NCBI RefSeq assembly: GCF_900156725.1
Contig: NZ_FTOI01000004.1
Location: forward strand, 124,001-188,000
Length of the DNA stretch: 64,000 nt
Reading direction: 5' to 3'
Origin: Kaistella chaponensis
Lineage (GTDB): Bacteria; Bacteroidota; Bacteroidia; Flavobacteriales; Weeksellaceae
A model generated the notes under the pieces. The model made no database searches. It was given only the letters and a program-made list of their open reading frames with translations, and had not been told where the DNA came from. The position numbers were made by a program, and so were the translations under genes. This document shows, in pieces, positions 22,939 to 57,919 of the stretch (the first letter of the stretch is position 1; each line of letters begins with the position of its first letter).

Positions 22939-23086
22939 AGTTTTGCACTCGAATACTTCACGAGGAAAATTTTGAACTGATTGCAACCTCCCAAAAAAAT
23001 GCTAAAACAGAATTTCTATTTTAGTTTCTTTTGTAATCACTTCCGTTTCCTTTAAAAATAAATTTTTTAAAAAAAACAAAAGAAAT

Positions 23087-24367
23087 ATGGCCTATCTATT
23101 TACATCTGAATCTGTTTCAGAAGGACATCCGGATAAAATCGCTGATCAAATTTCCGATGCACTCATCGATAATTTTCTAGCAAATGATCCCAATTCAAAA
23201 GTTGCGTGTGAAACATTAGTAACCACCGGACAAGTAGTTTTGGCAGGAGAAGTAAAATCTACCGCTTATCTTGATGTACAGGATATCGCCAGAAAAGTAA
23301 TCAACGGAATTGGTTATACCAAAGGAGAATACATGTTTAATGGTGATTCTTGTGGGGTGATTTCTTGTATTCACGAGCAGTCTGCAGATATTAATCAAGG
23401 GGTTGACCGGAATTCAGAAAATACCGATTTCGAAACCAAAGCAAACAATCAAGGAGCAGGAGATCAGGGAATGATGTTTGGTTACGCGACCAACGAAACT
23501 GAAAATTACATGCCATTAGCATTGGATTTGGCACACACGATTCTTAAAGAACTAGCAATCTTAAGAAGAGAAAATAATGCAATCAAATACCTTCGTCCTG
23601 ATGCAAAATCTCAAGTTACCATCGAATATTCTGATGATCATAAACCTGTAAGAATCGATTCTATTGTAGTTTCTACGCAACATGATGACTTCGGTAGTGA
23701 TGAAGCGATGTCTGCAAAAATCGAGAAAGACATCATTGAAATTTTGATTCCGAAAGTGAAAGCCAATCAAAAGAAAGATATTCAAGATCTTTTCAACGAT
23801 AAAATAAAATACCATATCAATCCAACCGGAAAATTTGTAATCGGTGGTCCACACGGAGATACGGGTTTAACTGGTCGTAAAATTATCGTAGATACTTACG
23901 GTGGTAAAGGAGCACACGGTGGTGGTGCTTTCTCTGGAAAAGATCCTTCAAAAGTAGATAGAAGTGCTGCTTATGCAGTTCGTCATATCGCTAAAAATCT
24001 GGTTGCAGCAGGAGTTGCAGATGAGGTTTTGGTGCAGGTTTCTTATGCGATTGGTGTTGCAAAACCTTGTGGTTTATATGTAAATACTTACGGAACGTCA
24101 AAACTCGGTTTACACGATGGCGAAATTGCAGAAAGAATTCAAAAGATTTTCGATTTGAGACCTTATGCAATTGAGCAAAATTTGAAATTAAGAAATCCTA
24201 TTTATCAAGAAACTGCTTCTTATGGACACATGGGAAGAGAACCTTATGTTGCTGATAAAACCTTCAGAAAAGCAGATGGGACAGATTTAGTGATCAAGGA
24301 TTTAGAGTTTTTCACTTGGGAAAAATTAGATAAAGTTGATGACATTAAGAAAGAATTTGGACTATAA
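23087..24367 (+). CDS. metK: S-adenosylmethionine synthase
   Basis: 426 aa. All three MAT signatures are seen: [14 protein letters not shown] near the N-terminus, [12 protein letters not shown] around residues 123-134, and the phosphate loop [20 protein letters not shown] around 282-301. The enzyme makes SAM from methionine and ATP in the cytosol. It is monocistronic and ends at a strong terminator. No SAM riboswitch is visible in its leader. Confidence 0.97.
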
Positions 24368-27850: not shown

Positions 27851-28489
27851 TTAAAAATCAAATCCGTTCGGAAAGGCTTTTTTTCTGAAAATAATAAGAA
27901 GTGCGGCTCCAACGGTAATTGCGGAATCTGCAACATTAAAAATATATTTAAAAAACTCGATGTGTTTTCCGCCGATTAATGGCCAACTTGCAGGAACATT
28001 CCAGTCTACTAAAGGGAAATGCAGCATATCGACGACGCAACCTTTCATAAAGGTAGAATAACCACTGCCGAACTCGACCACTTTAGAAATTCCACCGTAG
28101 TCAATCCATCGTTCGATGCTTTCGTCGTACACGGTTCCGCTGTCGAAAAGCATTCCGTAGAACATTCCATCGATCAAATTACCGATTGCTCCGGCAAAAA
28201 TGATCGCCATCGGAATGATCAGATAATTAGATTGCCCTTCTTTCAGCCATTTACTGAAAAGATAAATCATAAAACCGATGAGCGCAATTCGTACGATCAC
28301 AAGGAAGTATTTCCCGAGTAAACCGCCAAAATGAAATCCATACGCCATTCCTGGATTCTCTACGAAAGTCAATTTAAAACCCGGAAAAACAGGCACGCTT
28401 TCGCCGAGATTAAAATGGGTTTTGATATAAAATTTCGAGGCTTGGTCGATGAAAAGAATGATTAAAGTGATGAGTGCTATTTTCTTCAT
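27851..28489 (-). CDS. lspA: Lipoprotein signal peptidase (signal peptidase II)
   Basis: 212 aa, longer than the 160-170 aa of most bacteria. The four membrane segments and the aspartyl-protease signatures are present: GNLIDGMFYG and FNVADSAITVGA hold the two catalytic aspartates. An additional segment of about 45 residues (GMLFDSGTVYDES... GCVVDMLHF) lies between them, as in Bacteroidota versions. It cleaves lipoprotein signals in the inner membrane; many lipoproteins in this window are its substrates. The start overlaps the DUF2683 stop by one base. Confidence 0.94.
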   Translation of the reverse strand: MKKIALITLIILFIDQASKFYIKTHFNLGESVPVFPGFKLTFVENPGMAYGFHFGGLLGKYFLVIVRIALIGFMIYLFSKWLKEGQSNYLIIPMAIIFAGAIGNLIDGMFYGMLFDSGTVYDESIERWIDYGGISKVVEFGSGYSTFMKGCVVDMLHFPLVDWNVPASWPLIGGKHIEFFKYIFNVADSAITVGAALLIIFRKKAFPNGFDF

Positions 28490-29032: not shown

Positions 29033-29413
29033 CTATCGTTGCATATTTTTCGCCTCAATGCTTAATGTCGCGTGAGGAACAGCTCTAAGACGGTCTTTTC
29101 CGATGAGTTTACCAGTTACTCTACAAATTCCGTATGTTTTATTTTCAATACGAATTAAGGCGTTTTTCAGCTCGCGTAGAAATTTCTCTTGTCTTCCGGC
29201 TAAAATAGCGTTTTGTTCTTTGCTTAAAGTTTCTGCTCCTTCTTCAAACGCTTTGAAAGTAGGAGAGGTGTCGTCGGTTCCGTTATTTTGATCGTTGATA
29301 AAACTCTCGCGAACGAGCATTAAATCTCTTTCTGCTTTTAAAATTTTTGCCTGAATTAGTTCTTTAAATTCATTCAAATCGCTGTCGCTGTATCTTTGTC
29401 TTTCTTCTGCCAT
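29033..29413 (-). CDS. TraR/DksA-family protein with reduced zinc finger
   Basis: 126 aa. The coiled-coil part (about 1-80) has ELIQAKILKAERDLMLVRES. The C-terminal globular part reads YGICRVTGKLIGKDRLRAVP, where the expected second Cys is Thr and the downstream CxxC is absent. So the DksA zinc finger is incomplete, as in many Bacteroidota relatives. It probably binds RNA polymerase through the secondary channel to adjust transcription; no DksA-type DD pair is clear at the coiled-coil tip. Downstream of ileS by 59 nt. Confidence 0.82.
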   Translation of the reverse strand: MAEERQRYSDSDLNEFKELIQAKILKAERDLMLVRESFINDQNNGTDDTSPTFKAFEEGAETLSKEQNAILAGRQEKFLRELKNALIRIENKTYGICRVTGKLIGKDRLRAVPHATLSIEAKNMQR

Positions 29414-29471: not shown

Positions 29472-32400
29472 CTATTTCGCTCTATTAATATTGACTTTAA
29501 ATTTCTGCTCTTCAATTTCAATTTCATCGAAATTTGCGAGTGAATTTACAATTTCTATTTGATCCGACAATACTTCTTCTGAAATATATGTAGTGTTATT
29601 CAGGATTTCTTTTTCAAAGGGTGAGTTTTCTTCCAATTGAATTGAAATTCTATCAGTTAACTCAAAATCTTTTTCTTTTCTTAAATTTTGGATACGGTTG
29701 ATAAACTCTCTTGCTACACCTTCAGCTTTCAATTCTTTGGTCAATGTTAAATCTAACGCCACAGTCATTTTTCCTTCATTTGCGACGGTCCAACCTGGAA
29801 TGTCTTTGGTGAAAATTTCGACATCAGCTAAAGAAATTTCATAACTCTGAATTTCCATTTTCCCGTCTTTTTCTAAAGTTGAAATCTGTTCCGCGGTAAA
29901 ATTGGTGATTTCACCTGCAACCAGTTTCATGTCTTTCCCGAGTCGAGCTCCTAAAGTTTTGAAATTGGGTTTAATCTGTTTCACAATCAAATGTGAAGCT
30001 TCATCCGCATTGATTAAAACGAGTTCTTTTACGTTTACTTCCTGTTTGATAAGATCCGAAACGGCTAAAATCTGTTGTTCGATTTTTGCATCCATCACAG
30101 GAATCATGACTTTTTGCAAAGGTTGCCGGACTCGGATATTTTCTTTTTTTCTTAGTGAAAATACCATTGAGGTAATTTGCTGCGCCAAATGCGTTTTTTC
30201 TACCAAATCCTGATCGATCAAACGTTCATCTGCTTTCGGGAAGTCAGTTAAATGAATGGATGTTGCTGCATTTTTACCCGTACTTTTATTCAAATCCTGG
30301 TACAACTGATCCATAAAAAATGGTGCAATTGGGGCTGCAATTTTTGCAATTGTTTCAAGACAGGTATATAAGGTTTGGTAAGCAGAGATTTTATCCTCGG
30401 AATAATCGCCTTTCCAGAATCTCCTTCTGCAAAGTCTTACGTACCAGTTGCTTAAGTTATCATTGACAAAATTATTGATGGCTCTTGCCACTTTTGTCGG
30501 TTCGTAATCATTGTAAAATTCTGTGACCTCTTTTACTAATAAATTCAGTTCAGATAAAACCCAGCGATCAATTTCCGGTCGGTTTTCGACCTCTTTTTCT
30601 GAATAATTAAATCCATCAACATTTGCGTAAAGCACGAAGAATGAATAGGTGTTGTAAAGTGTTCCGAAGAATTTTCTGCGAACTTCATCAATTCCTTCTA
30701 CATCGAATTTTAAATTTTCCCAAGGATTAGCGTTCGAAATCATGTACCAACGCGTCGCATCGGGACCATATTTGTCCAAAGTTGTGAACGGATCTACTGC
30801 ATTACCAAGTCGTTTCGACATTTTTTGGCCGTTTTTATCCAAAACTAAACCATTCGACATTACATTTTTATAAGCTACAGAATCGAAAACCGCTGTTCCA
30901 ATCGCATGAAGCGTATAAAACCAACCACGGGTTTGGTCTACACCTTCTGCAATAAAATCTGCAGGAAACGCCTTTCTTTCATCGATCATTTCTTTGTTTT
31001 CGAACGGATAGTGCAACTGCGCATAAGGCATTGCTCCAGAATCAAACCACACGTCAATCAAGTCGGATTCTCTGTTCATCGGTTTTCCGGAAGGTGAAAC
31101 CAAAATGATTTCATCTACAATATTTTTATGCAGATCTATTTTTGCATAATTTTCTTTCGACATGTTTCCGCTTTCAAAACCTTCAAAAGGATTTTGGGTC
31201 ATGAAACCTTTTTCCAAAGATTTTTTAATTTCAGCCATTAGTTCTTCTACAGAACCGATGATGATTTCTTCTTTCAAATCTTCTGTACGCCATATTGGCA
31301 AAGGAATTCCCCAATATCTGGAGCGCGAAAGATTCCAGTCGTTTACGTTTTCGAGCCAGTTTGCAAATCTGCCTTCACCTGTAGATTTAGGTTTCCAGTT
31401 GATGGTTTCGTTTAAAGCTACCAAACGGTCTTTTACCGCGGTCATTTTCACAAACCAAGAATCGAGTGGATAATACAAAACGGGTTTATCGGTTCGCCAA
31501 CAATGCGGATAACTGTGAACGTATTTTTCTACTTTAAAGGCTTTGTTTTCTGTTTTTAAAAGAATTGCCAATTCGACATCCCAAGATTTTTCGGGTGCAG
31601 TTCCGGTTTCGTAATATTCGTTTTTAATATATTTTCCGGCAAAAAGTTCGGGTACATGTTCTCCTTTCAAGAATTTTCCCTGCAAATCAACTAGCGGAAC
31701 GAGGTTGTCGTTTTCGTCTTTGATCAACATTGGTGGAATTCCGTTTTCTTTTGCTACACGTGCATCATCTGCACCAAAAGTCGGTGCAATGTGAACGATT
31801 CCGGTTCCATCTTCAGTCGTCACAAAATCTCCGATGATTACTTTAAAAGCGTTTTCAGGATTTTCCGCTGGTAAAAACCACGGAATCAATTGTTCGTATT
31901 CTGCTCCGGCTAAATCTGCTCCGGTAAATTCATTTAAGATTTGATAAGGGATGTTTTTATCGTCGGCTTTGTAGTTTGCGAAATCTTCTTCAGTAGCAGC
32001 AAAGTATTTTTTACCAAAATTTTTCTCCAGAAGAACTTTAGCCAAAATAATATGAACAGGTTCAAAAGTATATTGGTTAAAGGTTTTCACCAAAACATAT
32101 TCGATGTCTCTACCAACTGCTAAAGCGGTGTTGGAAGGTAAAGTCCATGGAGTGGTCGTCCAAGCCAAAATGTAGATTGGTTCTTGGTTTTTGGTTTTTG
32201 GTTCTTGGCTCTCTTTATCAAATTCTGCCCAATGATTAACACCTCCGCAGGTTTCATTTTCTAAATTAATGATTTGAGTTAAATGATTCAGCTTCTCGTT
32301 CAAAGAATCTGAAAGTTTTTTAACCTTAAACTGCGCAACTACGGTCGTATCAGAAACATCGCGATAGGTTCCGGGCTGATTCAATTCGTGGGAAGACAAA

Positions 32401-32966
32401 CCGGTTCCTGCAGCGGGAGAGTAAGGTTGAATGGTGTAGCCTTTGTATAATAGATCTTTGGTGTATAATTGCTTCAGAAGCCACCAAACGGTTTCCATAT
32501 ATTTGGGTTCGTACGTGATATATGGATCTTCCAAATCTACCCAATATCCAATTTTTTCTGTCAGATCATTCCAAACATCGGTATAACGCATTACAGCATT
32601 ACGACAAGCTTGATTGTAATCTTCAACGGAAATTTTCTTTCCGATATCTTCTTTTGTGATGCCTAATTCTTTCTCAACACCTAGTTCTATAGGTAAACCG
32701 TGAGTATCCCATCCTGCTTTGCGAAAAACCTGTTTTCCTTGTTGGGTTTGGTAGCGGCAGAAAATGTCTTTCAGCGCTCTTGCCATCACATGATGAATTC
32801 CGGGCATTCCGTTGGCAGAAGGCGGTCCTTCATAGAATACATATTCCGGTTTCCCCTCGCGGATTTCTACGGATTTTTTAAAAGTTTCGTTTTCGGTCCA
32901 AAACTGGGTGATGTTTTGGGCAACTGCGGTTAAATCGAGATTTTTATATTCGGTAAACTTCTTCAT
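29472..32966 (-). CDS. ileS: Isoleucine-tRNA ligase with GxHH signature
   Basis: 1164 aa from ATG 32966 (MKKFTEYKNL); an upstream TTG in frame adds only two residues and is rejected. The size and the lack of a C-terminal zinc finger fit the type 2 IleRS. The KMSKS motif is intact at 715-719 (KMSKR). The first signature, normally H-x-G-H, reads G56-I57-H58-H59 (MPGIHHVMA), so first and third positions are swapped. This swap is known from type 2 IleRS with very high mupirocin resistance. The editing domain is present between the halves of the Rossmann fold. Confidence 0.96.
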   Translation of the reverse strand: MKKFTEYKNLDLTAVAQNITQFWTENETFKKSVEIREGKPEYVFYEGPPSANGMPGIHHVMARALKDIFCRYQTQQGKQVFRKAGWDTHGLPIELGVEKELGITKEDIGKKISVEDYNQACRNAVMRYTDVWNDLTEKIGYWVDLEDPYITYEPKYMETVWWLLKQLYTKDLLYKGYTIQPYSPAAGTGLSSHELNQPGTYRDVSDTTVVAQFKVKKLSDSLNEKLNHLTQIINLENETCGGVNHWAEFDKESQEPKTKNQEPIYILAWTTTPWTLPSNTALAVGRDIEYVLVKTFNQYTFEPVHIILAKVLLEKNFGKKYFAATEEDFANYKADDKNIPYQILNEFTGADLAGAEYEQLIPWFLPAENPENAFKVIIGDFVTTEDGTGIVHIAPTFGADDARVAKENGIPPMLIKDENDNLVPLVDLQGKFLKGEHVPELFAGKYIKNEYYETGTAPEKSWDVELAILLKTENKAFKVEKYVHSYPHCWRTDKPVLYYPLDSWFVKMTAVKDRLVALNETINWKPKSTGEGRFANWLENVNDWNLSRSRYWGIPLPIWRTEDLKEEIIIGSVEELMAEIKKSLEKGFMTQNPFEGFESGNMSKENYAKIDLHKNIVDEIILVSPSGKPMNRESDLIDVWFDSGAMPYAQLHYPFENKEMIDERKAFPADFIAEGVDQTRGWFYTLHAIGTAVFDSVAYKNVMSNGLVLDKNGQKMSKRLGNAVDPFTTLDKYGPDATRWYMISNANPWENLKFDVEGIDEVRRKFFGTLYNTYSFFVLYANVDGFNYSEKEVENRPEIDRWVLSELNLLVKEVTEFYNDYEPTKVARAINNFVNDNLSNWYVRLCRRRFWKGDYSEDKISAYQTLYTCLETIAKIAAPIAPFFMDQLYQDLNKSTGKNAATSIHLTDFPKADERLIDQDLVEKTHLAQQITSMVFSLRKKENIRVRQPLQKVMIPVMDAKIEQQILAVSDLIKQEVNVKELVLINADEASHLIVKQIKPNFKTLGARLGKDMKLVAGEITNFTAEQISTLEKDGKMEIQSYEISLADVEIFTKDIPGWTVANEGKMTVALDLTLTKELKAEGVAREFINRIQNLRKEKDFELTDRISIQLEENSPFEKEILNNTTYISEEVLSDQIEIVNSLANFDEIEIEEQKFKVNINRAK

Positions 32967-33054
32967 TTTCAATCAGTTTAACAGGTTTTATCCTAATTAA
33001 TTAAGTTTGCGAATATAAGGAATTTTCGGGAAATTTCAGAGGGTAAATTCCAGC

Positions 33055-55347: not shown

Positions 55348-56210
55348 TGAAGAAAATACTAATAATCGGCGGAAACGGACAACTCGGCAACTGTTTTAGA
55401 AAATTAGCTCCCGAATATGAGGATCGTTTTGAATTCGATTTTACAGACTCCCAAACGCTAAATATCATTGATAGAGATCAGGTTTCAGATTATTTTTATG
55501 ATTTCAAACCCGATTATTGCATCAATGCTTCAGCTTATACTGCAGTTGATCTAGCCGAAACTGAATCTGAAAAGGCTTTTGCCGTCAATGCAGATGGCGT
55601 CGGAAATCTTGCGGAAGCTTGCGCAGAAAACAAAACCATTTTCATTCATATTTCCACCGACTATGTTTTCGATGGCGAAACCAATATTTCCTATTCTGAG
55701 GACGATTTTACCAATCCGCAAGGAGTATATGGCGCTTCAAAAGAAAAAGGTGAAGACTTGGCGATGGACCTTCAACCAAAAACAATCATCTTGCGAACTT
55801 CCTGGCTTTATTCAGAATTCAACAAAAATTTTGTAAAAACCATGTTGCATTTGTTTGAGGTGAAAGAAGAATTGGGAATTGTCGATGATCAATTTGGTCA
55901 ACCAACCAATGCGAATGATTTGGCACAAGCGGTAATGAACATTGTTGAAAAAGAAACAAAAACTTACGGCATTTTCCACTTTTCAAATTATCCGGAGACT
56001 ACTTGGTTTAATTTTGCCCAGAAAATAGCAGATTTCTCCGGCTCCAAAATTAAATTGAATCCCATCACAACTTCTGAATTCCCAACAGCTGCAAAACGCC
56101 CAAAACGTAGTACAATGTCTTTAGATAAAATTGAAGAGGTCTACAAAATCGAACCCAAATATTGGCAAAACTCCCTCGAAGAATGTATCCAAATCTTACA
56201 GAAATCATGA
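55347..56210 (+). CDS. rfbD: dTDP-4-dehydrorhamnose reductase
   Basis: 287 aa SDR-type protein. Rossmann motif IIGGNGQLGNCF (residues 6-17), STDYVFDG (103-110), YGASK with Tyr128/Lys132 of the Y-x-x-x-K pair. It reduces dTDP-4-keto-L-rhamnose to dTDP-L-rhamnose. rfbA, rfbB and rfbC are not in the window, so rhamnose supply must come from elsewhere; rhamnose could feed the polysaccharide operon 6 kb away. Confidence 0.93.
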   Translation: MKKILIIGGNGQLGNCFRKLAPEYEDRFEFDFTDSQTLNIIDRDQVSDYFYDFKPDYCINASAYTAVDLAETESEKAFAVNADGVGNLAEACAENKTIFIHISTDYVFDGETNISYSEDDFTNPQGVYGASKEKGEDLAMDLQPKTIILRTSWLYSEFNKNFVKTMLHLFEVKEELGIVDDQFGQPTNANDLAQAVMNIVEKETKTYGIFHFSNYPETTWFNFAQKIADFSGSKIKLNPITTSEFPTAAKRPKRSTMSLDKIEEVYKIEPKYWQNSLEECIQILQKS

Positions 56211-56884
56211 AAAAATTAATCTGTTTAAGTGTCTTATTTTTTGGTCAAATCTTTTTTGGTCAAACCGTAATTCTAAACAAAGTCGTGAAATCCAACCAGA
56301 ATTCCGAAAAAATATTTTATAAAATCAATGCGAATAACAGCAATGCCGAATATTTAGGGGAACTCGAAGTTCAGGGCTTTTCCGATGACGACGTCAAAGT
56401 TTTTGGCATGATCTACAAAAAAGCCAAAGAAATCGGTGCAAATGCCTTTTCGTATCAACCTTTTGAAACGGTTGATGGTCTGGTTCAGAAGTTCGATGAA
56501 GCGCATTACCGCCTCAATCTCTACCATGTTCCCGCAAATGCTTTTCCCAAAGAAAACAACGTTTTTTATCTCATTGCTTCACCATACACCAAACAGGCGA
56601 TTGCCGTAAACAAAGACAATATCGTGTTCAAGCCTAGAACTTTTATCAAGAAAACCCTTTCGGCAGGCGAAATTATGACTGTTTCTACGAAGAAACTTTT
56701 AGGATCCACCATTAAACTTGCAGCGCAGGAAAACCAGCCAATGCAGTTTTTTCAATTCTCAGCGTTTTCGGTCAATTCAAATGCTTCTGGAACTGCGGGA
56801 ATCAATCTAAAATCTGGTGATATCACTCGTTTAGAGCAGTCTTATGGCCAGTTTCTTACCACGATTTACGAAGAATTGAAATAA
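56207..56884 (+). CDS. Conserved hypothetical exported protein
   Basis: 225 aa from ATG 56207 (MKKLICLSVLFFGQIFFGQ), which overlaps the rfbD stop by 4 nt (ATGA). This start gives a clean signal peptide ending FGQ; an earlier start inside rfbD would not. The mature part has a KANNSNAEYLGELEVQG-like start and an ANAFPKENNVFYLIASP segment; no family recognised. It is probably periplasmic or surface-located, translationally coupled to rfbD. Confidence 0.72.
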   Translation: MKKLICLSVLFFGQIFFGQTVILNKVVKSNQNSEKIFYKINANNSNAEYLGELEVQGFSDDDVKVFGMIYKKAKEIGANAFSYQPFETVDGLVQKFDEAHYRLNLYHVPANAFPKENNVFYLIASPYTKQAIAVNKDNIVFKPRTFIKKTLSAGEIMTVSTKKLLGSTIKLAAQENQPMQFFQFSAFSVNSNASGTAGINLKSGDITRLEQSYGQFLTTIYEELK

Positions 56885-56889
56885 TTTTT

Positions 56890-57022
56890 TTAGGAGCAAC
56901 AACAGTTTTGCTTCTTATCAAAACCCGTCCCGCTCTTCACTCTATCTTTTTTGCCAGAAAAAAAATCTTCAAAACTTTAATGACAGTTGGCAAAAAAGGA
57001 TGCCGTTGCGATCGGGGCTAAA
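56890..57022. repeat. Structured intergenic element with TTTTTTGCCA inverted repeats
   Basis: About 130 nt with TTTTTTGCCA (56947-56956) and its complement TGGCAAAAAA (56988-56997) around an AT core, flanked on one side by GGAGCAACAACAG and CCCGTCCCGCTC, and on the other by GGATGCCGTTGCGATCGGGG. The shape AGCCC...GGCATCC...inverted repeat...GATA.AG recalls a repeated intergenic element I know from other flavobacterial genomes. Not checked by comparison. Confidence 0.6.
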
Positions 57023-57076
57023 ATGAAGGGCAGTTTGTCGCTCAACGAAAATTCTCCCACAAAAATCTCAATGTTG

Positions 57077-57088: not shown

Positions 57089-57808
57089 ATGAAAACAGAT
57101 ATTTTAGCCATCGGAGCTCATCCAGATGATATAGAGCTCGGTTGCGGCGGAACAATTGCCAAATTGATAAGCGAAGGAAAAAAGGTAGTCATCGTCGATC
57201 TTACGCAAGGAGAGCTCGGAACACGTGGTACCAATTTTACCAGAGCAGAAGAAGCAGCGGAAGCCTCCAAAATATTGGGGATTTCTAAGCGAGAAAATTT
57301 GAAAATGAAGGACGGTTTTCTACTGAATTCAGAAGAATACCAAATGCAAATCGTAAAAATGATTCGCAAATACCAACCGGAAATTATTTTTGCAAACGCC
57401 ATCGATGATCGACATCCTGATCACGCAAAAGCTGCAAAATTGGTTTCAGATGCGTGTTTTCTTTCAGGTTTGGTTAAGATTGAAACCGTTTCTGAGGGCG
57501 AAAATCAAAAACCATGGCGACCAAAACAAATATTTCACTACATCCAATGGAAAAATGTCACCCCAGATTTCGTATTTGATATTTCTGACTTTATGGAGAA
57601 AAAAATTGAAGCGTGTCTTGCGTACAAAACCCAGTTTTATGATCCCAATTCCACAGAACCAATGACGCCAATTGCGACAAAGGATTTTCTGGAAAGCCTC
57701 ACTTATAGAGCTCAGGATTTAGGCAGACTCTCTGGTGTAGCCTTTGCAGAGGGCTTCACAACAGAAAAATTGCTAGCATTTAAAAATTTTGACGGAATAG
57801 TTTGTTAA
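57089..57808 (+). CDS. bshB1: Bacillithiol biosynthesis deacetylase BshB1
   Basis: 239 aa. The PIG-L/LmbE zinc-deacetylase motif is HPDD at residues 11-14 (GAHPDD), with the second zinc-binding His in DDRHPDHAKAAK. TQGELGTRGT matches the BshB1 subgroup. It deacetylates GlcNAc-malate to GlcN-malate in bacillithiol synthesis, the cytosolic thiol of this group, which complements the OxyR/catalase defences here. bshA and bshC are not in the window. Confidence 0.94.
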   Translation: MKTDILAIGAHPDDIELGCGGTIAKLISEGKKVVIVDLTQGELGTRGTNFTRAEEAAEASKILGISKRENLKMKDGFLLNSEEYQMQIVKMIRKYQPEIIFANAIDDRHPDHAKAAKLVSDACFLSGLVKIETVSEGENQKPWRPKQIFHYIQWKNVTPDFVFDISDFMEKKIEACLAYKTQFYDPNSTEPMTPIATKDFLESLTYRAQDLGRLSGVAFAEGFTTEKLLAFKNFDGIVC

Positions 57809-57844: not shown

Positions 57845-57919
57845 GGTGGTTGTAGTTCAGTTGGTTAGAACGTCGGTTTGTGGTACCGAAGGTCGTGGGT
57901 TCGAGACCCATCATCCACC
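57845..57919 (+). tRNA. tRNA-His (anticodon GTG)
   Basis: Complete cloverleaf. G-1 (57845) is present and can pair with C73 (57919), the His identity element. The acceptor is GTGGTTG with CATCCAC, with one U5-U68 mismatch. D stem GTTC/GAAC, anticodon stem TCGGT/ACCGA with the loop TTGTGGT (anticodon GTG), and T arm GTGGG/TTCGAGA/CCCAT (G49-U65 wobble). CCA is not encoded. Confidence 0.95.

What the first reader, a model, noticed from the sequence alone, without database searches (positions are those of the whole stretch)
32790..32801. IleRS with swapped HIGH motif (G-I-H-H)
The class I synthetase signature H-x-G-H reads G56-I57-H58-H59, with first and third positions exchanged. The enzyme is the long, zinc-less type 2 IleRS, and KMSKR is intact. 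From memory, this exact swap in type 2 IleRS has been tied to very strong resistance to the antibiotic mupirocin. If this is the only IleRS in the genome, the bacterium should be naturally highly resistant.
Basis: partly seen in the sequence, partly recalled or inferred. Interest (0 to 1): 0.7.

Follow-up and report, generated by a model that had tools for sequence, protein, structure and literature searches.

The report
Bacteroidota isoleucyl-tRNA synthetase with swapped motif
This is the ordinary, apparently single-copy isoleucine-charging enzyme of a Kaistella-like bacterium; its rearranged active-site motif is a published feature tied to near-insensitivity to the antibiotic mupirocin, and every relative read here from its phylum carries it too.

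Summary
Window 32790-32801 (minus strand) encodes Gly56-Ile57-His58-His59 of a 1,164-aa isoleucyl-tRNA synthetase, in the place of the class I HxGH motif; no HxGH occurs elsewhere in the protein. The enzyme is type 2: HYPFE present, type 1 signatures absent, no IleRS zinc finger (E. coli IleRS1, the control, has it), no cysteine in the last 250 residues. One place passes the ileS cut-off in a draft genome estimated 99.97% complete. The interpretation matches published work: natural G/AxHH IleRS2 enzymes have millimolar mupirocin Ki (Brkic 2023, PMC10485003). It is not special to this bacterium: all 165 genomes read, of 296 sampled in the phylum, carry GxHH (49 of 50 families), and all 80 named relatives carry GIHH. 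The gene sits in a conserved ileS-TraR/DksA-lspA order. So it is a housekeeping enzyme, probably vertically inherited (no tree built), with a known variant motif and probably mupirocin hyper-resistant. I found no measured Ki or MIC for it. My idea that GxHH requires an aliphatic residue on the adenine side failed (3 of 54 exceptions).

The parts
29472..32966 (-). ileS, type 2 isoleucyl-tRNA synthetase, 1164 aa from the ATG at 32966 (an in-frame TTG lies at 32972)
   Evidence: ORF; NCBIfam TIGR00392 985 bits against cut-off 621; Pfam tRNA-synt_1, Anticodon_1, DUF5915
32790..32801 (-). GIHH, swapped HxGH signature motif (residues 56-59)
30810..30824 (-). KMSKR, second class I signature motif (residues 715-719)
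32175..32321 (-). lineage-variable insertion in CP1 just before the editing domain (residues 216-264, borders approximate)
32177..32212 (-). imperfect heptamer tandem repeat (5.1 copies, 89% matches) inside that insertion, read as ...SQEPKTKNQEP...
29033..29413 (-). TraR/DksA-type zinc-finger protein gene, downstream neighbour (named by the YGICR.TG stretch and by synteny; no family scan run)
   Evidence: annotated neighbours
27851..28489 (-). lipoprotein signal peptidase gene (lspA), named by synteny (no family scan run)
   Evidence: annotated neighbours

Best explanation
The window encodes the only detected, housekeeping, type 2 isoleucyl-tRNA synthetase of a Kaistella-like member of the Weeksellaceae, with the natural non-canonical GxHH form of the HxGH motif. 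[quoted passage not shown] The same side chain occupies space that mupirocin needs, so Ki should be about millimolar and the cell's target hyper-resistant. Shown here: sequence, type, copy number in the draft, conservation, gene order. Inferred from characterised homologues: catalytic role of His58, Ki, cellular resistance. Inferred from conservation and synteny, without a tree: the motif is an old, vertically inherited trait of the phylum and not an acquired resistance gene.
For: Motif and frame. Type 2 mark HYPFE present; Tyr59, NKIL and SSL of type 1 absent (marks from PMC4861432 section 21; alignment). No PF06827 zinc finger reported up to E 1, while E. coli IleRS1 gives it at 6.2e-11; no cysteine in the last 250 residues. 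One match over the ileS cut-off in G000; the other matches lie in ORFs of 891, 940 and 688 aa and stay below it. Published Ki: 6600 uM for natural ALHH D. radiodurans IleRS2, 8.1 uM after exchange to HVGH, 0.20 and 1.08 uM for two natural HVGH IleRS2 (Table 1); 10 mM for S. griseus (passage), which says bears the non-canonical motif. Conservation: 165 of 165 phylum genomes read and 80 of 80 named records. Downstream TraR/DksA motif in 75 of 80 named loci.
Against: I found no Ki or MIC for this enzyme or organism. The enzymes measured differ: DrIleRS2 has ALHH, and TtIleRS2 given GVHH reached only 35 uM, PmIleRS2 460 uM, so GxHH alone does not guarantee a millimolar Ki. The genome is a draft of 34 contigs. 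Five of 80 named loci lack the downstream TraR/DksA motif.
Confidence: 0.93

Rival explanations
1. The gene is an acquired, mobile resistance ileS like the mupA/mupB genes.
For: It is of the same broad type, and NCBIfam MupA and MupB models match at 713.5 and 728.4 bits. A few Bacteroidota records of the plasmid collection carry ileS.
Against: Both scores are far below the 1900-bit cut-offs of those models. It is the only place over the ileS cut-off in the genome, and the TraR/DksA neighbour is kept in 75 of 80 named loci. The three Bacteroidota plasmid records opened hold the same block among housekeeping genes and are typed non-mobilizable.
Confidence: 0.02
2. GxHH is kept for catalytic or epistatic reasons; mupirocin resistance is a by-product with no ecological meaning in this phylum.
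For: It is invariant in 165 of 165 genomes read in 49 of 50 families, with no reversion seen; named Bacteroides and Parabacteroides records have it too. Exchange to GVHH cost PmIleRS2 and TtIleRS2 up to tenfold in kcat or KM, whereas natural ALHH DrIleRS2 shows no loss of kcat/KM, so natural enzymes seem adjusted to it.
Against: Reversion is inferred in Deinococcus-Thermus, so it is possible in principle; the authors favour antibiotic selection. Fixation by descent alone would look the same.
Confidence: 0.35
3. The motif is a sequencing or annotation artefact.
For: None found.
Against: Same motif in 80 of 80 named records.
Confidence: 0.005

Closest known systems
Non-canonical G/AxHH IleRS2 (Brkic et al. 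2023, PMC10485003): D. radiodurans and S. griseus enzymes
   Same: Type 2 enzyme with the first and third positions of the motif exchanged
   Different: Bacteroidota branch: GIHH where DrIleRS2 has ALHH, KMSKR in the class loci read, Ser in GPPxANG, longer and variable CP1; not measured biochemically
Canonical IleRS2 of Priestia megaterium (8c8u, 8c8v) and T. thermophilus (1ile)
   Same: Among the best sequence matches in solved structures (E 8.4e-229, 5e-229 and 9.1e-209); the GVHH mutant 8c8w is the top match (8.9e-231)
   Different: They carry HVGH; mupirocin Ki 1.08 and 0.20 uM
MupA/MupB IleRS of staphylococci
   Same: Type 2-like, tied to mupirocin resistance
   Different: About 36% identity in the listed mupA rows, window protein below the family cut-offs, found on plasmids; their motif was not read here

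Membership tests
Isoleucyl-tRNA synthetase (TIGR00392) | Score over curated cut-off | tested here: met
   985.2 bits against 621.4
Type 2 (eukaryote-like) IleRS | HYPFE present; Tyr59, NKIL, SSL of type 1 absent | tested here: met
   marks. Nonomuraea in the same alignment lacks HYPFE, so that mark is not universal
Type 2 (eukaryote-like) IleRS | No C-terminal zinc finger of type 1 | tested here: met
   PF06827 not reported up to E 1 (HMMER filters drop most matches above about 0.1); present in the E. coli IleRS1 control; no Cys in the last 250 residues
G/AxHH hyper-resistant IleRS2 | G/A-x-H-H in place of H-x-G-H | tested here: met
G/AxHH hyper-resistant IleRS2 | Mupirocin Ki in the millimolar range | not testable with these tools
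   Needs purified enzyme
MupA / MupB | Score over curated cut-off (1900 bits) | tested here: not met
   713.5 and 728.4 bits

The most novel reading that the evidence does not exclude
The swapped motif is an ancestral, entrenched catalytic state of the whole phylum Bacteroidota, with no reversion in the genomes read, so hyper-resistance to mupirocin there is a by-product of active-site history and not an adaptation to the antibiotic. The phylum would be a natural collection in which to find which other residues make the swap cost-free.
Probability: 0.35. Interest if true: 0.35.

Novelty: already known. Interest (0 to 1): 0.15.

Why it matters
It is a correct reading of a subtle but published feature. 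The only addition is scope: the swap holds in every genome of the phylum that I read. If the published mechanism carries over, Bacteroidota would be insensitive to mupirocin at the target level, and their enzymes would be a large natural set for studying how a class I synthetase tolerates a rearranged HIGH motif. The main text of the key paper does not name the phylum; its figures and supplements were not available to me.

Tried and rejected
1. Covariation idea: GxHH needs an aliphatic residue at the place of PmIleRS1 Phe586 / PmIleRS2 His582 (window Leu707). In one search the 14 GxHH enzymes (12 Bacteroidota, Acetoanaerobium, Nonomuraea) have Leu or Met there, the two Bacilli with HxGH have His and E. 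coli IleRS1 has Phe. But of the 60 phylum loci, 54 could be read there: 48 Leu, 3 Met, 3 His (all GVHH: L080, L081, L082); and canonical T. thermophilus IleRS2 has Leu. Rejected as a strict rule.

2. An apparent internal TAG in one relative (G057) suggested read-through of ileS; in the fetched DNA the stops lie upstream of the likely start. Rejected.

3. Heptamer repeat in the CP1 insertion as a genome-wide element. A first search used a pattern too strict to find even the window's own tract, and the four-unit expression was likewise too strict. Repeated with three units and A or G at the last place: in the genome only this tract (2 overlapping matches), and in 0 of 80 named loci (which finds the window's tract as control). 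A local, recent tract; nothing more shown.

4. Physiological evidence: the listings (20 of 55 papers shown) showed no title or abstract start giving a Ki or MIC for a Bacteroidota enzyme or strain; I opened three of those papers in passages only. PMC13085705: mupirocin at 0.005 mg/ml is predicted to raise recovered Bacteroidaceae diversity, but Enterobacteriaceae yield too, so it does not discriminate. PMC11064412: 100 mg/l mupirocin media gave mainly clostridia; Bacteroides is listed among species from the selected media as a whole, so it tells nothing either way. PMC10835994 lists the IleRS of Ornithobacterium among resistance-related genes with mupirocin; no measurement in the passage seen.

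5. No tree and no structure prediction were made; sequence matches to solved type 2 structures were strong.

Full report
What is there. The reported bases 32790-32801 encode, on the minus strand, Gly-Ile-His-His. The protein scores 985 bits against the isoleucyl-tRNA synthetase model with cut-off 621. In alignments with E. coli IleRS1 and Priestia megaterium IleRS2 the GIHH occupies the HxGH columns, and no HxGH occurs elsewhere in the protein.

Type. The published marks of type 1 (Tyr59, NKIL, SSL) are absent and the type 2 mark HYPFE is present (marks from PMC4861432 section 21; alignment). The type 1 zinc finger PF06827 is found in E. coli IleRS1 at 6.2e-11 and is not reported in the window protein up to E 1; that protein ends in DUF5915 and has no cysteine in its last 250 residues. 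The editing-domain stretches WTTTPWTLPSN and GTGIVHIAPTFGADD align with those of the other enzymes without gaps.

Genome context. The window lies in a 3.04-Mb draft of 34 contigs, estimated 99.97% complete. One place passes the ileS cut-off; weaker matches fall in frames of 891, 940 and 688 aa, presumably ValRS, LeuRS and MetRS by size (my labels). The closest named relatives are Kaistella gelatinilytica (91%), K. jeonii (90%) and K. soli (89%) (which may leave out the window's own or a very near genome). Downstream come a TraR/DksA-type gene and lspA; the TraR/DksA motif follows ileS in 75 of 80 named loci, the other 5 having at least 700 bases of downstream DNA without it. Annotated Riemerella, Parabacteroides and Bacteroides records show the order ileS-TraR/DksA-lspA.

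Distribution. Of 296 genomes sampled across the phylum, the window's own included, 294 have a match at 1e-100. I read the motif in 165: the window's own and 4 more from the loci, 60 (61 genomes asked, chosen to spread over families; G291, 88% complete, had no match), and 100 from places listed. All 165 have GxHH: the 5 are GIHH; the 60 are 50 GIHH, 8 GVHH, 1 GLHH, 1 GMHH (one of them, G176, is a contig-end fragment); the 100 are 82 GIHH, 17 GVHH, 1 GLHH. They cover 49 of the 50 families (f42 not read). 131 sampled genomes were not read, and the 100 came from the better-scoring, listed matches, so the choice was not random. All 80 named records are GIHH (the best 80 of more, so close relatives). 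Outside the phylum I read only four type 2 enzymes, from records of the plasmid collection: Acetoanaerobium GIHH, Nonomuraea GVHH, Sutcliffiella HAGH, Paenibacillus HIGH.

Mechanism. Brkic et al. 2023 (PMC10485003; sections 6-11 read, plus abstract and opening part) report that natural ALHH D. radiodurans IleRS2 has a mupirocin Ki of 6.6 mM, that exchange to HVGH lowers it 823-fold, that GVHH raises Ki of two canonical IleRS2 (0.20 to 35 uM and 1.08 to 460 uM by their Table 1), and that in crystal structures the third-position His takes the position of the first, while a model shows it clashing with mupirocin. Applied here: His58 does the work of the canonical first His and excludes mupirocin. 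This transfer is inference. The window enzyme has Leu707 where PmIleRS1 has the stacking Phe586 and PmIleRS2 has His582, possibly one contact fewer; but that residue is not tied strictly to the motif (3 of 54 GxHH enzymes have His).

Is it new? No. The motif, its presence in 86 of the 379 sequences of their tree and its effect are published. The main text of that paper has no word with Bacteroid or Flavobacteri, nor has PMC4861432; figures and supplements were not seen, so the phylum may well be in their tree. Phylum-wide conservation is at most a small extension.

Mobility. A protein search of the plasmid collection gave 247 records (30 listed): among those listed are four Riemerella records (80%) and Parabacteroides, Phocaeicola, Bacteroides and Prevotella records (49.6-58.7%); 143 of the 247 are staphylococcal, the listed ones annotated mupA at 35.8% identity. 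Of the Bacteroidota ones I opened three: all hold ileS-TraR/DksA-lspA among housekeeping genes and look like stretches of chromosome labelled plasmid (inference; I did not check whether those strains have another ileS).

Verdict. Observation confirmed, interpretation supported by published work, subject ordinary for its phylum.

Noticed in passing
window 32175-32321 (minus): The CP1 segment just before the IleRS editing domain varies strongly in length and sequence among relatives, yet 12 of 80 named loci (Kaistella, Bergeyella, Soonwooa and others) share a CGGxxHWxE stretch inside it; the window has CGGVNHWAE. Role unknown.
   Followed up: partly
window 32177-32212: An imperfect heptamer repeat (about 5 copies) lies in the coding sequence of this essential gene, inside that insertion; three-unit arrays occur nowhere else in the genome and in 0 of 80 named loci.
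   Followed up: partly
window 30810-30824 and loci L083-L162: The second signature motif varies between KMSKR (53) and KMSKS (27) among 80 named relatives, while phylum loci outside the window's class mostly have KMSKS.
   Followed up: no
L163 (NZ_CP081938.1), L165 (NZ_OY725767.1), L166 (NZ_OY725923.1): Records labelled plasmids that carry the housekeeping ileS-TraR/DksA-lspA block (lepA too in Riemerella); possibly chromosome stretches mislabelled as plasmids.
   Followed up: partly
G115:C10:537-770: A second, partial IleRS-like frame (205 aa, 49% to the window) besides the full-length gene in one relative of the class; fragment, pseudogene or contamination.
   Followed up: no
window 22956-23015 (+): SAM-II riboswitch match (54.6 bits, gathering 44) upstream of the ORF at 23087.
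   Followed up: no
window 56922-57023 (-): Flavo-1 RNA match (Rfam RF01705, 67.8 bits, gathering 42) on the minus strand between the plus-strand ORFs 56162-56884 and 57089-57808; a tRNA-His lies at 57846.
   Followed up: no
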